Positions 6,182 through 10,395 of a DNA stretch of 44,406 bases are shown piece after piece. Origin of the DNA: Malikia sp. (GTDB lineage Bacteria > Pseudomonadota > Gammaproteobacteria > Burkholderiales > Burkholderiaceae_C). The notes under the pieces were generated by a model. The model saw nothing but the letters and a program-made list of their open reading frames with translations. It did not search any database and had not been told where the DNA came from. The translations under genes and the position numbers were made by a program. The stretch covers positions 1 through 44,406 of the forward strand of contig NZ_JAQTZS010000026.1 in NCBI RefSeq assembly GCF_028687635.1, written 5' to 3'. Numbering within the stretch: position 1 is the stretch's first letter; every line of letters starts with the position of its first letter.

Positions 6182-7264
6182 TCAGTCGGCCAGCATCTCG
6201 CACAGCGCCTTGACCAGCTGCGCGCACTGTTCGTCGGTGCCGATCGTGATGCGCAGGAACTGGTCGATGCGCGCCTGCTTGAAGTGGCGCACCAGGATGG
6301 CGCGTGCGCGCAGCGCGGCGGCCAGTTCGGCGCCGTCGCGGTTCGGGTGACGCGCGAAGACGAAGTTGGCGCCCGAAGGCAGCACCTCGAAGCCGAGCTG
6401 CCGCAGCTGGGCGACCAGGGTCTCGCGGGTCGCGATCACCTGCTGGCAGCTGTGCTGGAAAAATCCCTCGTCCTCGACCGAGGCCACCGCGCCAGCCAGC
6501 GCGAGGCGGTCCAGCGGGTACGAGTTGAAGCTGTTCTTGACCCGTTCCAGGCCTTCGATCAGCTCCGGGTGGCCGATCGCATAACCCACGCGCAGGCCCG
6601 CCAGCGAGCGGCTCTTGGAGAAGGTGTGCACCACCAGCAGGTTGGGATACTCGTCTACCAGCGCGATCGCGCTCTCGCCGCCGAAGTCGACATAGGCCTC
6701 GTCGACCAGCACCACCGCGTCGGGGTTGGCGGCGACGATGCGCTCGACCGCGTCCAGCGCCAGCAGGCGCCCGGTCGGCGCGTTCGGGTTCGGGAAGATG
6801 ATCGCGCCGGCTTTCTGGCCCGGTCCGTCGCCCTGCGGCAGGTAGTCCTCGACCCGGATCGTGAAGTCATCCGCCAGCGGGATCTGCCGCTGCGCGACGC
6901 CGTAGAGGCCGCAATAGACCGGGTAGAAGCTGTAGCTGATGTCGGGGAACCAGAGCTCGCGCTCCTGCTTGAGCAGCGCCTGGAAGGCATGCGCCAGCAC
7001 CTCGTCCGAACCGTTGCCGACGAAGACCTGGTTCGGCTGCACGCCATGGCGGTGGGCCAGCGCGGTTTTCAGCGCGTCGGCGTTCGGGTCCGGATACAGG
7101 CGCAGGCTGTCGCCGGTCGCCGCGCGGATCGCCGCCAGCGCCTTCGGCGACGGGCCGTAGGGATGCTCGTTGGTGTTGAGCTTGACCAGGTTGTCGATCT
7201 TGGGCTGTTCGCCCGGCACGTAGGGGGTCAGGCCGTGTACGACGGCGCTCCAGTAGCGGCTCAT
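6182..7264 (-). CDS. hisC: histidinol-phosphate aminotransferase
   Basis: A PLP-dependent aminotransferase of 360 residues that converts imidazole-acetol phosphate to L-histidinol phosphate. The family landmarks are NPNAPTG (N161), D188 and Y191 near the cofactor ring, and the Schiff-base lysine K217 in [15 protein letters not shown] chose the ATG at 7264 ([12 protein letters not shown]) because the homologous part starts there; the frame stays open upstream as [10 protein letters not shown] but looks non-homologous. It is oriented away from hisB, whereas hisC usually precedes hisB on the same strand. hisG and hisD are not in the window. Confidence 0.95.
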
Positions 7265-7383
7265 GCGGTGATTCTGCGGTGGGGAATGGACCGGCCAGGA
7301 CGGTTGCCGGCAGGGGCAAAACGGGCTGACGATGGTATCATGGGTCCCATTTTCCCTACTGGGCGTCACGCCCTCCCAGCCCC

Positions 7384-7971
7384 ATGCGGCAAGCCGAAGT
7401 CACCCGCAACACCCTCGAAACCCGGATCAGCGTCCGCATCAATCTGGACGGCACCGGTCAAGCCAAGCTGAACACCGGCATCGGTTTCTTCGACCACATG
7501 CTGGACCAGATCGCGCGCCACGGCCTGATCGATCTCGATATCCAGTGCCAGGGCGACCTGCACATCGACGGCCACCACACGGTCGAGGATGTCGGCATCG
7601 CGCTGGGCCAGGCCTTCGCCCAGGCGGTCGGCGACAAGAAGGGCATCCGGCGCTACGGTCATGCCTATGTGCCGCTCGACGAGGCGCTCAGCCGCGTGGT
7701 GGTCGATTTCTCGGGTCGTCCGGGCCTGCACATGGATTGCAAGTTCAGCGCCGGCTCGATCGGTCAGCTCGACACCCAGCTGGTGTTCGAGTTCTTCCAG
7801 GGCTTCGTCAACCATGCCCTGGTGTCGCTGCATGTCGACAACCTCAAGGGTCACAACGCACACCACCAGTGCGAGACGATCTTCAAGGCCTTCGGCCGCA
7901 CCCTGCGTGCCGCGCTCGAACTCGACCCGCGCTCGGCCGGCGTGATTCCCTCGACCAAGGGCTCGCTCTGA
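7384..7971 (+). CDS. hisB: imidazoleglycerol-phosphate dehydratase
   Basis: A 195-residue monofunctional IGP dehydratase catalysing the step before HisC. The manganese-binding motifs are visible: [14 protein letters not shown] near residue 40, [10 protein letters not shown] near 65, and a C-terminal [15 protein letters not shown]. The length is normal and there is no fused phosphatase domain, unlike the enterobacterial bifunctional HisB. A small GGGCG-TCA-CGCCC hairpin sits at 7361-7373 just before the start, with no clear Shine-Dalgarno. It heads the plus-strand his run; the next his gene (hisH) is displaced 1.76 kb downstream by the IscB element. Confidence 0.97.
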
Positions 7972-8010
7972 TTTCCTTCGCCAGCGCTCCGGAACCGACA
8001 AGGTCAACCA

Positions 8011-8030
8011 CCCCGGCCTAAAGGCCGAGG
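8011..8030. repeat. left-end hairpin of the IscB element
   Basis: CCCCGGCCTAAAGGCCGAGG folds into a 9-position stem with one C/A mismatch and a two-base loop. It matches the right-end copy at 9694-9713 at 19 of 20 positions, differing only in the loop (AA versus GA). Both lie in the same orientation, as expected for subterminal palindromes of IS200/IS605-type ends. Confidence 0.75.
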
Positions 8031-8318
8031 CTTGCAAGGTTAACGCCTCGTCAGCCTGAGATTGACCAGACCGAGCACCGCAAGGTGCTTGCGTTGTGCA
8101 GAAGACAGTAAGACCCACCCTGGCGTGCTTCCTCAGCGCCGGGCTCTGGAAGTAGCCGCTGCAGACACGCTTCGGGTAAGCACGAAACGGGCGGCGACCG
8201 GCGCGTAAGCGCCACCTGCTGCACAACCTGGTCGAGGGGAGCCGGGTCGAAAGACCCGCGTCACCAGGCCCGTAAGGGCTGACAGCCGGAAAGACGGCAT
8301 TGTTTTATAGGAGCTGAC
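8011..8318 (+). ncRNA. putative omega-RNA (wRNA) guide scaffold for IscB
   Basis: This stretch upstream of iscB contains no plausible gene on either strand but is rich in hairpins. Clear ones are AGCACC-GCAA-GGTGCT (8074-8089), GGCGC-GTAA-GCGCC (8200-8213), CGGGTC-GAAA-GACCCG (8243-8258) and GCCC-GTAA-GGGC (8268-8279). All have GNRA tetraloops. CCTGGT (8227-8232) pairs with ACCAGG (8263-8268), enclosing the GAAA hairpin, although it shares base 8268 with the last hairpin. CGAGGC (8026-8031) can pair with GCCTCG (8045-8050). Position and arrangement match wRNAs of IscB loci: the scaffold lies upstream of the gene, ends at its ribosome binding site, and the guide is the 5'-flanking sequence. 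The segments CCTGAGA, CACCCTGG and a CCGG-rich middle also resemble, from memory, the characterised OgeuIscB wRNA. The exact ends are not determined. Confidence 0.75.
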
Positions 8319-9704
8319 TTGTCAGTGTATGTGTTGGACCGAAGCGGCAAGCCGCTGATGCCGTGTACCGAGAAGCGAGCCCGCTTGCTGCTCGAGCGCG
8401 GTCGGGCGCGGGTGCATCGGCTGGTGCCCTTCGTTATCCGGCTCGTGGACCGGCAAGTGACTGACTGCGCCTTGCAGCCGCTGCGCGTCAAGCTCGACCC
8501 AGGAAGCAAAGGCACAGGGCTGGCGCTGGTGCGCGACACCGAGCAGGTCGATGCCAACACGGGCGAGATTCAGCGTGGCGCGTCGGTGCTGAACCTGATG
8601 GAGCTGGTGCATCGGGGCCGGGAAATCTCCGAAGCACTGACTGCGCGCCGGCAGATGCGTCGCCGACGTCGCGGCGCCAATCTCCGCTACCGCGCGCCGG
8701 GCTTCCTCAACCGTAGACGCCATGCGGGTTGGCTCGCGCCTTCGCTGCAACACCGGGTCGATACGACAAGGGCTTGGGTGACACGGATACAGCGCTGGGC
8801 ACCCGTGGCGGCCTTGAGCTCGGAGCTGGTGCGCTTTGACACGCAGGCGCTGGACAACCCGGACATCGAAGGCGCGCAATACCAACAAGGCACGCTCGCG
8901 GGCTACGAGGTGCGCGAGTACCTGCTGGAGAAATGGGGCCGGCAGTGTGCCTACTGCGACGCCACCGGCGTGCCGCTGCAGGTCGAGCACATCCACCCCA
9001 AGGCGCGTGGCGGCACAAACCGCGTGAGCAACCTGACGCTGGCGTGCCAGGCTTGCAACGCGCGCAAGGGTGCCCTGCCGCTCGAAGTCTTCGTGACCGA
9101 CAAGGCCCGGCTGGCGCGCATTCAGGCTCAGCGCAAGCGTCCGCTCAAGGATGCTGCCGCGGTCAACAGCACCCGAAAAGTCTTGGTGGGGGCGCTGCAA
9201 GCGACGGGCTTGCCAGTCGAAACCGTGTCAGGTGGGCGCACGAAATACAACCGCATCCGGTTCAAAATCGAAAAAACGCATGCGCTCGATGCCGTGTGCG
9301 TGGGTGACGTGGATATCGTCACGGACTGGGACAAGCCGACGCTGGCCCTCAAATGCACCGGGCGCGGCAGCTACCAGCGCACGCGCCTGAACCAGTACGG
9401 CTTTCCGCGTGGCTACTTGATGCGCACCAAGCGCGTCAAGGGCTTTGCCACGGGTGACTTGGTGCGTGCCGAGATGCCTAAGGGCAAGAAGGTGGGCACG
9501 CACATAGGCCGTGTGGCGGTCCGCGCTAGCGGAAGCTTTAACATCCAGACCGGCACCGAGGTGGTGCAAGGTATTTCGCACCGCCACTGCCAGGTGCTGC
9601 AACGCGCCGATGGCTACGGCTACTTTCATCAACAGAACTTGACAAGAAAGGATGCGGGAGAGGGTCGTGCCAAGCGCACGACGCGCTCTGCCTCCCCGGC
9701 CTGA
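8319..9704 (+). CDS. iscB: RNA-guided endonuclease IscB (RuvC + HNH)
   Basis: A 461-residue member of the family ancestral to Cas9. The N-terminal PLMP/RRXRR region includes KPLMPC (residues 11-16) and [14 protein letters not shown]. RuvC-I has the catalytic D60 in LDPGSKGTG. An arginine-rich bridge-helix-like segment lies at 110-135 ([12 protein letters not shown]). RuvC-II contains E169 in ELVRFD. The HNH insertion at about 205-252 has zinc pairs C210/C213 and C243/C246 with the E223-H224 core in [11 protein letters not shown]. RuvC-III contains H321 and D324 in KTHALDAV. The C-terminus (about 345-440, [16 protein letters not shown]) matches the part expected to contact target DNA and wRNA. 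All catalytic positions look intact. It starts at TTG 8319 behind AGGAG (8309-8313); GTG 8325 is an alternative. The stop codon lies in the right-end hairpin. Confidence 0.92.
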
Positions 9705-9713
9705 AGGCCGAGG
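9694..9713. repeat. right-end hairpin of the IscB element
   Basis: CCCCGGCCTGAAGGCCGAGG is the second copy of the terminal hairpin. The iscB stop codon TGA (9702-9704) occupies the stem-loop apex, so coding region and transposon end overlap. It is followed by TTTCCCGCGCAATCTG and then the hisH ATG at 9730. Confidence 0.75.
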
Positions 9714-9729
9714 TTTCCCGCGCAATCTG

Positions 9730-10395
9730 ATGAACCGACAGACAGTGGCCGTGGTCGACTACGGCATGGGCAATCTGCGCTCCGTCGCACAGGCCGTCAT
9801 TCACGCCGCGACCGCGGTCGACCATGTGGACGTGGTCGTGACCTCCGACCCGCAGGCGGTGCGTGACGCGCACCGCGTCGTGCTGCCCGGCCAGGGCGCC
9901 ATGCCCGACTGCATGATGGAGCTCGAACGCTCCGGCCTGCGCGACGCCGTGCTTGAAGCCGCCGCCGCCAAGCCGCTGTTCGGCGTCTGCGTCGGCATGC
10001 AGATGCTGCTCGACCACAGCGAGGAAGGCCCGACCGACGGCCTGGGCCTGATCCCGGGCCGCGTGATCCGCTTCCAGCTCGACGGCCAGTACCAGCCCGA
10101 CGGCAGCCGCTTCAAGGTGCCGCAGATGGGCTGGAACCGCGTTTTCCACCAGCTCGGACGCGGCGACTCGCACCCGGTCTGGGCCGGCATCCCCGACGGC
10201 GCCTACTTCTATTTCGTGCACAGCTTCCACGCCCATCCGCAGCAGCTGGCGCACAGCGTCGGCGAAACCGACTACGGCAGCCGCTTCAGCTCGGCGGTGG
10301 CGCGCGACAATATCTTCGCGACCCAGTTCCACCCGGAGAAGAGTGCTGACCAGGGCCTCGCGCTCTATCGCAACTTCCTGCACTGGAATCCCTGA
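9730..10395 (+). CDS. hisH: imidazole glycerol phosphate synthase, glutaminase subunit
   Basis: A 221-residue class I glutamine amidotransferase that supplies ammonia to HisF. The nucleophile is C87 in GVCVGMQML, and the triad is completed by H201 and E203 in FHPEKS. The N-terminus [18 protein letters not shown] is typical, which fixes the ATG at 9730. The 16 nt before it belong to the IscB element's right end or its immediate flank and contain no Shine-Dalgarno sequence. The frame is open back to an ATG at 9652 inside iscB, which would add 26 residues of unrelated sequence. Translation may depend on coupling or on that upstream start. Confidence 0.96.

What the first reader, a model, noticed from the sequence alone, without database searches (positions are those of the whole stretch)
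8011..9720. Intact IscB RNA-guided nuclease unit lodged inside the histidine operon
The gene encodes a full-length IscB with every recognisable RuvC and HNH catalytic position (D60, E169, H224, H321/D324). It is flanked by matching terminal hairpins and lies between hisB and hisH in the operon's orientation, with no transposase beside it. Seen directly: motifs, hairpins, gene order. From knowledge of the ISC/IscB family: such proteins are wRNA-guided DNA nucleases. Inference: this is an active, operon-driven solo IscB that could be retained by selection or maintained by homing.
Basis: partly seen in the sequence, partly recalled or inferred. Interest (0 to 1): 0.82.

Follow-up and report, generated by a model that had tools for sequence, protein, structure and literature searches.

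The report
Mobile IscB nuclease at start codons
A small mobile DNA element carrying a likely RNA-guided DNA cutter has landed exactly in front of the start codon of a histidine gene, and its sister copies in the same genome sit in front of other genes' start codons, which gives a testable idea of how such elements survive.

Summary
Window 8003-9729 is a complete, transposase-less HEARO/IscB (ISC-type, IS200/IS605 superfamily) element: omegaRNA (Rfam HEARO) plus an intact iscB, inserted between hisB and the ATGA that starts hisH. It is not unique: the genome carries seven, each with a HEARO RNA and each followed directly by the ATGA that opens a downstream gene (hisH, purM, trpF, CYTH, aldehyde dehydrogenase, TctC, BON). 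The four congeners held have the empty hisB-hisH site, and five of the other six sites are empty too. So this is a species-private mobile insertion, not an ancestral or domesticated his gene. IscB copies evolve under purifying selection (dN/dS 0.14-0.26). The presumed guide is the hisB-side flank; with ATGA as TAM it would recognise the empty site in congeners (15-16 of 16 bases). One element end resembles an end of the resident IS605 element, whose type of TnpA tracks IscB in the five genus genomes held, suggesting mobilisation in trans. Landing on co-directional start codons (30 of 44 scorable elements; 21% at control tetramers; weaker outside Proteobacteria) is the most interesting result; I read it as selection for host-driven transcription of the guide. 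Cleavage, expression and transposition were not tested.

The parts
7384..7971 (+). hisB, gene upstream of the insertion
   Evidence: NF002106 HisB 360.6 bits
7987..8002 (+). presumed 16-nt guide of the omegaRNA: host flank directly 5' of the element
   Evidence: position and length by analogy with IscB omegaRNAs (recalled, not tested); element boundary from 8 aligned copies and 4 empty sites
8003..9729 (+). whole HEARO/IscB element, 1727 bp, no target-site duplication
   Evidence: difference between window and empty junction in 4 of 4 congeners; same ends in 7 own copies and 1 congener copy
8003..8247 (+). HEARO RNA = omegaRNA scaffold
   Evidence: RF02033, 88.7 bits, model 1-211 of 211
8011..8030 (+). 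terminal hairpin at the omegaRNA end (loop TAAA)
   Evidence: sequence; consensus structure
8319..9704 (+). iscB, 461 aa, TTG start
9694..9713 (+). terminal hairpin at the iscB 3' end; resembles one end of the resident IS605 element
9730..9733 (+). ATGA: inferred target/TAM and start codon of hisH
   Evidence: same four bases follow 8 of 8 genus copies and stand at 23 of 23 empty junctions
9730..10395 (+). hisH, downstream gene, start codon preserved
   Evidence: TIGR01855 191.3 bits

Best explanation
This is a non-autonomous ISC-type (HEARO/IscB) element of the IS200/IS605 superfamily, inserted precisely before the ATGA of hisH in this species and not in the four congeners held. Shown: anatomy, precise insertion, empty sites, intact catalytic residues, purifying selection on IscB, seven copies at gene starts. 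Inferred: (1) it is moved by a Y1 TnpA acting in trans, most likely that of the resident IS605 element, one end of which is similar; (2) transcription of hisB reads into the element, so the omegaRNA carries the hisB-side flank as guide; (3) IscB uses ATGA as TAM and cuts the empty hisB-hisH site, after excision or on incoming DNA, so repair from a filled copy restores the element; (4) landing at a co-directional start codon leaves both neighbouring genes readable and ensures a host promoter for guide and nuclease, so insertions there are the ones that persist.
For: IscB and HEARO profile matches. Seven IscB and seven HEARO, one to one, in the genome. Empty site in 4/4 congeners for hisH and for purM, trpF, BON, CYTH (4/4 each), and for aldehyde dehydrogenase in the 3 congeners where the start was found; all 23 have ATGA at the junction. 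Downstream ATGA opens the gene in 8/8 genus copies. 30/44 scorable elements open an ORF of 100+ codons at that tetramer (26/36, a further 4/8), against 327/1550 other RTGA sites in the loci; annotated starts are 11/582 of all RTGA and 6/140 of those outside coding sequence in 11 plasmid loci. dN/dS 0.14-0.26. IS605 end against element end: 35/47 identical ungapped, 0/2000 shuffles as good. IS200-type TnpA full-length in G000 and G003, broken in G001, not found in G002 and G004; IscB likewise. Guide against empty hisH site 15-16/16 in 4 congeners; purM 16/16 in 4.
Against: No expression, cleavage or transposition data. The guide match to the orthologous empty site follows from the insertion itself and is not independent proof; for trpF, CYTH and ALDH the flank matches relatives poorly (2-13/16), for BON 13-16/16. 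The TnpA link rests on five genomes, one of them 84% complete; the IscB pieces in G001 are only 43-46% identical, so another lineage; and that IS605 sits at another target (TTGAT-like by eye). 14 of 44 scorable elements are not at an ORF of 100+ codons, and two more ends (L031, L037) are followed by ATGG, not RTGA. Copies are old relative to the host (dS up to 1.26 against 0.16-0.22 for hisH), so recent amplification from one copy is unlikely for most pairs; repeated transfer is possible. At the ALDH site the outer left flank lies 1.4-3.6 kb away in relatives, so that empty site rests on a short stretch.
Confidence: 0.68

Rival explanations
1. Plain tolerance: TnpA inserts at any NTGA/TCAT, insertions inside genes are lost, and start codons are simply harmless sites. 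No promoter capture and no benefit from IscB cutting is needed for the pattern.
For: Insertions leave both coding sequences nearly intact. Transposition by IS200/IS605 TnpA depends on a short target only (recalled). 14/44 elements are elsewhere.
Against: Among RTGA sites outside coding sequence in 11 plasmid loci only 6/140 are annotated starts, yet 8/8 genus copies are at gene starts. Purifying selection on IscB argues that the nuclease matters.
Confidence: 0.3
2. Homing-type spread: the element arrives at hisH by transfer from other bacteria and is copied into the empty site after IscB cuts it, without any transposase.
For: The flank guide matches the empty hisH and purM sites of four congeners with ATGA adjacent. 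Very patchy distribution, 3 of 200 genomes of the family sampled, own genome included.
Against: The seven copies sit at seven unrelated sites, which cutting and repair at matching sites cannot create. None of the four congeners held has the hisH insertion.
Confidence: 0.15
3. Domesticated his-operon gene: IscB or its RNA regulates or protects histidine synthesis.
For: Location inside the operon, same orientation.
Against: Absent from the site in 4/4 congeners; six sister copies at unrelated genes; catalytic residues intact.
Confidence: 0.03

Closest known systems
HEARO RNA / HEARO ORF elements (Weinberg et al. 2009, recalled; PMC9755519, section 9 and passages seen)
   Same: HEARO RNA directly upstream of an RuvC-HNH ORF, compact, only rarely near TnpA; insertion before ATGA/GTGA is, as I recall, described for HEARO
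   Different: Here seven copies in one genome, with empty sites in congeners, all at gene starts
ISC transposons with IscB (Kapitonov et al.; Altae-Tran et al.; recalled, not held)
   Same: IscB with omegaRNA, guide from the flank, IS200/IS605-type hairpin ends
   Different: No tnpA in the element
OMEGA IscB/IsrB nucleases with characterised TAMs (PMC9581776, PMC13180657, passages seen)
   Same: IsrB orthologues recognise NTG, NTGA/TTGA or NTGG TAMs, close to the ATGA inferred here
   Different: TAM of this IscB is inferred from insertion sites only; OrufIscB uses NTAAA
IS605 TnpA/TnpB elements and TnpB gene drive (PMC11870625, passages seen)
   Same: End hairpins alike; nuclease thought to favour filled over empty sites
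   Different: IscB in place of TnpB; TnpA separate; other target

Membership tests
IscB (RNA-guided endonuclease) | IscB profile over cut-off, RuvC and HNH residues | tested here: met
   NF040563 431.7 bits over 175; D60, E169, H224, H321, D324 conserved
IscB (RNA-guided endonuclease) | cognate omegaRNA upstream | tested here: met
   RF02033 at 8003-8247; 7 of 7 own copies have one, 6 of 7 over the gathering score
IscB (RNA-guided endonuclease) | RNA-guided cleavage next to a TAM | not testable with these tools
   needs a cleavage assay
ISC / IS200-IS605 superfamily element | subterminal hairpins, precise insertion next to a short fixed target, no target duplication | tested here: met
ISC / IS200-IS605 superfamily element | own Y1 transposase (autonomous member) | tested here: not met
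   no Y1_Tnp on the window's contig; two elsewhere in the genome
ISC / IS200-IS605 superfamily element | mobilised by a Y1 TnpA in trans | tested here: inconclusive
   similarity of one end and co-occurrence over five genomes; no excision assay
Domesticated host gene | conserved at the locus across relatives | tested here: not met
   empty site in 4/4 congeners

The most novel reading that the evidence does not exclude
HEARO/IscB elements use gene start codons as their niche: the ATGA/GTGA that serves as target and TAM doubles as a start codon, so a surviving insertion is placed just downstream of a host promoter and 5' UTR or operon gap. That host sequence becomes the guide, and both neighbouring genes stay readable. 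In ATGA stop/start overlaps (BON and trpF copies) the left hairpin loop supplies a new stop a few codons in.
Probability: 0.33. Interest if true: 0.68.

Novelty: new member of a known kind. Interest (0 to 1): 0.5.

Why it matters
Many IscB elements have no transposase beside them (PMC9755519, section 9), and how they move and why they keep an intact nuclease is, as far as I know, open. A genome with seven copies, empty sites in close relatives and a resident TnpA whose element has a similar end makes both questions directly testable. If the start-codon bias is selection for guide transcription, it explains how an element without an evident promoter keeps its guide RNA expressed, and predicts where active IscBs should be sought.

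Tried and rejected
Rejected: a his-specific role (six sister copies at unrelated genes; empty site in congeners). Rejected: a conserved N-terminal extension of the downstream protein. The right end is open in the downstream gene's frame ([16 protein letters not shown], one copy with S for G), but a start codon in that frame is not conserved among copies (by eye). Kept only as speculation: the left hairpin loop stop codon as a device for ATGA overlaps. 28 of 30 left ends have a stop within 36 bases in that frame against 13 and 8 in the other two, but the loop may well be conserved for TnpA or RNA reasons. Led nowhere: the empty site of the TctC copy (its left flank is a dispersed repeat); tblastn of the resident TnpA against all loci held hit only four loci, each fetched as a TnpA match, so no such TnpA lies in the few kb around the IscB loci; Pfam on the first 80 residues of HisH gave nothing, the whole HisH being recognised; papers by Weinberg, Kapitonov and Altae-Tran are not held. 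Literature: no held paper with IscB, 'start codons' and IS605 (0 papers); HEARO with integration and start codon gave one unrelated plant-virus review; IscB with 'start codon' and 'insertion' gave 12, of which I looked into one, where the term concerns gene models. This is not proof that the bias is unpublished.

The count went from 26/36 to 30/44; I left the odds as they were.

Full report
What is there. The ORF at 8319-9704 encodes a 461-residue IscB: NCBIfam NF040563 at 431.7 bits against a cut-off of 175, Pfam RRXRR and HNH, and IscB chains among 17 PDB sequences matched. In an alignment of 44 IscB sequences chosen from the loci held, D60 is kept in 43, E169 in 44, H224 in 43, H321 in 43 and D324 in 44. 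Directly upstream, 8003-8247 matches Rfam HEARO over its whole length at 88.7 bits, above the gathering score of 83. PMC9755519 (section 9 read) treats HEARO ORFs and IscB as one family and the HEARO RNA as the omegaRNA.

Boundaries. The seven copies in the genome (HEARO hits one to one, 7 of 7, six over the gathering score) begin GTCAA and end in a hairpin followed by CGYAAYYTG and then ATGA. In the window the element is 8003-9729; hisB ends at 7971 and hisH starts at 9730. hisH was found in 5 of 5 genus genomes held, and in the four congeners the junction reads CCGGAACCGACAAG directly followed by ATGAACCGACAG. The insertion is precise, without target duplication, and private to this genome among those held.

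Sister copies. The downstream genes are hisH, CYTH/CHAD, purM (AIR synthase), aldehyde dehydrogenase, TctC, a BON-domain protein and trpF, with an exonuclease/endonuclease-family gene for the single full-length copy in congener G003. In 8 of 8 the ATGA after the element opens that gene's frame. That it is the true start is inferred: the family matches begin at residues 4 to 58, and the relatives carry the same ATG. Empty sites were found for purM, trpF, BON and CYTH in 4 of 4 congeners and for the aldehyde dehydrogenase in 3; none for TctC, whose left flank is a dispersed repeat. All 23 junctions have ATGA. At trpF the flank next to ATGA differs from relatives by a few bases; at the aldehyde dehydrogenase the outer left flank lies 1.4-3.6 kb away in relatives, so that site is the weakest. 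The site of the G003 copy was not looked up in other genomes.

Wider sample. In one search I scored 36 elements: eight genus copies, 21 of the 41 named loci, and seven of the 11 plasmid regions fetched (L110, L111, L112 and L114 dropped because I could not recognise the end; the first, cut-off copy on L105, whose annotated next gene does start at the ATGA, also not counted). 26 of 36 open an ORF of 100 or more codons exactly at the tetramer (8/8, 14/21, 4/7), against 327 of 1550 other RTGA sites in the same loci. One of the 26 (L024) has ATGG in place of ATGA and shares its site with L026, so items are not all independent. One search went through the other 20 named loci: six had a scorable RTGA end (2 yes: L040, L053; 4 no: L039, L041, L042, L051), two ends are followed by ATGG instead (L031, L037), and twelve were cut off or without a recognisable end. 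It also scored the two copies of family member G042 (141 and 166 codons; one has an extra G before ATGA). Together 30 of 44, or 30 of 46 with L031 and L037. In loci of Bacillota and the like the share is lower (6 of 11: L028, L032, L034, L035, L036, L039, L040, L041, L042, L051, L053). In 11 plasmid loci only 11 of 582 RTGA sites, and 6 of 140 outside coding sequence, are annotated starts. ORF length is a rough proxy for a gene; of eight downstream proteins of this sample submitted to Pfam, five were recognised (VirB8, proton antiporter, 2Fe-2S thioredoxin, phosphoribosyltransferase, prephenate dehydrogenase) and three were not.

Selection and age. dN/dS is 0.14-0.26 for the 28 pairs of eight genus copies. 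dS is 0.12-0.20 among the TctC, BON and trpF copies, 0.25-0.47 among the hisH, CYTH and purM copies and about 0.8-1.26 between groups (the aldehyde-dehydrogenase copy being apart from both), while hisH of this genome and its congeners differs by dS 0.16-0.22. So the nuclease has been kept working, and most copies diverged before they reached their present sites. That fits movement of old lineages or repeated arrival rather than one recent burst. The aldehyde-dehydrogenase copy's omegaRNA is hisH-like over its first part and TctC-like in one 60-column window (0.39 against 0.88 identity), a possible recombinant. The G003 copy has lost part of its omegaRNA (1607 bp).

Mobility. The elements have no transposase. 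The genome has two Y1 proteins elsewhere: a TnpA of IS200/IS605 type and one nearer the REP-associated kind. The TnpA lies beside what reads as the start of a divergent tnpB (by eye). Its end hairpin resembles the iscB-side end of the elements, 35 of 47 bases ungapped, 0 of 2000 shuffles scoring as well (the two stretches were chosen by eye). In the genus, an IS200-type TnpA is full-length without stops in G000 and G003, broken in G001 and not found in G002 and G004. IscB follows the same pattern, though the G001 pieces are of another lineage, 43-46% identical. With five genomes this is suggestive only. In the family, 3 of 200 genomes sampled, own genome included, have an IscB at E 1e-60 or better.

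How it would work. In IscB systems the guide is the sequence just 5' of the omegaRNA (recalled); PMC9581776 (passages) gives NTGA-type TAMs for the related IsrB. Here the guide would be the hisB-side flank. The filled site lacks the TAM next to the target; the empty site has it. For hisH the 16 flank bases match the empty site of congeners at 16, 15, 15 and 15 positions, for purM at 16 in all four, for BON at 13-16, but for trpF, CYTH and the aldehyde dehydrogenase only at 2-13. The promoter scan found nothing in 7200-9900, but expected only 0.3 by chance; terminator-like sites were 3 against 1.8 expected. Expression from the host operon is plausible, not shown.

Verdict. It is a member of a known kind of element. 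The concentration on co-directional start codons is what deserves follow-up, since tolerance, promoter capture and targeting make different predictions for fresh insertions.

Noticed in passing
L004 (G000:C46:23999-25351, - strand): iscB has an open frame of 1026 codons and reads in frame into the downstream aldehyde dehydrogenase, so a fused protein is possible.
   Followed up: no
window 9652-10395: The hisH frame is open upstream into the element, so gene callers may start HisH at 9652 and add 26 residues encoded by the element's right end.
   Followed up: partly
L005 left flank (G000:C49:67441-67560): Left flank contains a dispersed, partly palindromic repeat of about 40 bases found in all five genus genomes, possibly REP sequences of the REP-associated transposase at C40.
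   Followed up: no
L104, L105 (first copy), L106: On Polaromonas and Cupriavidus plasmids the annotated iscB stop overlaps the next gene's start as TGATG, a possible translational coupling.
   Followed up: partly
L024 and L026: Two Paraburkholderia species carry the element at the same start codon of a phosphoribosyltransferase-like gene; one has ATGG in place of ATGA.
   Followed up: no
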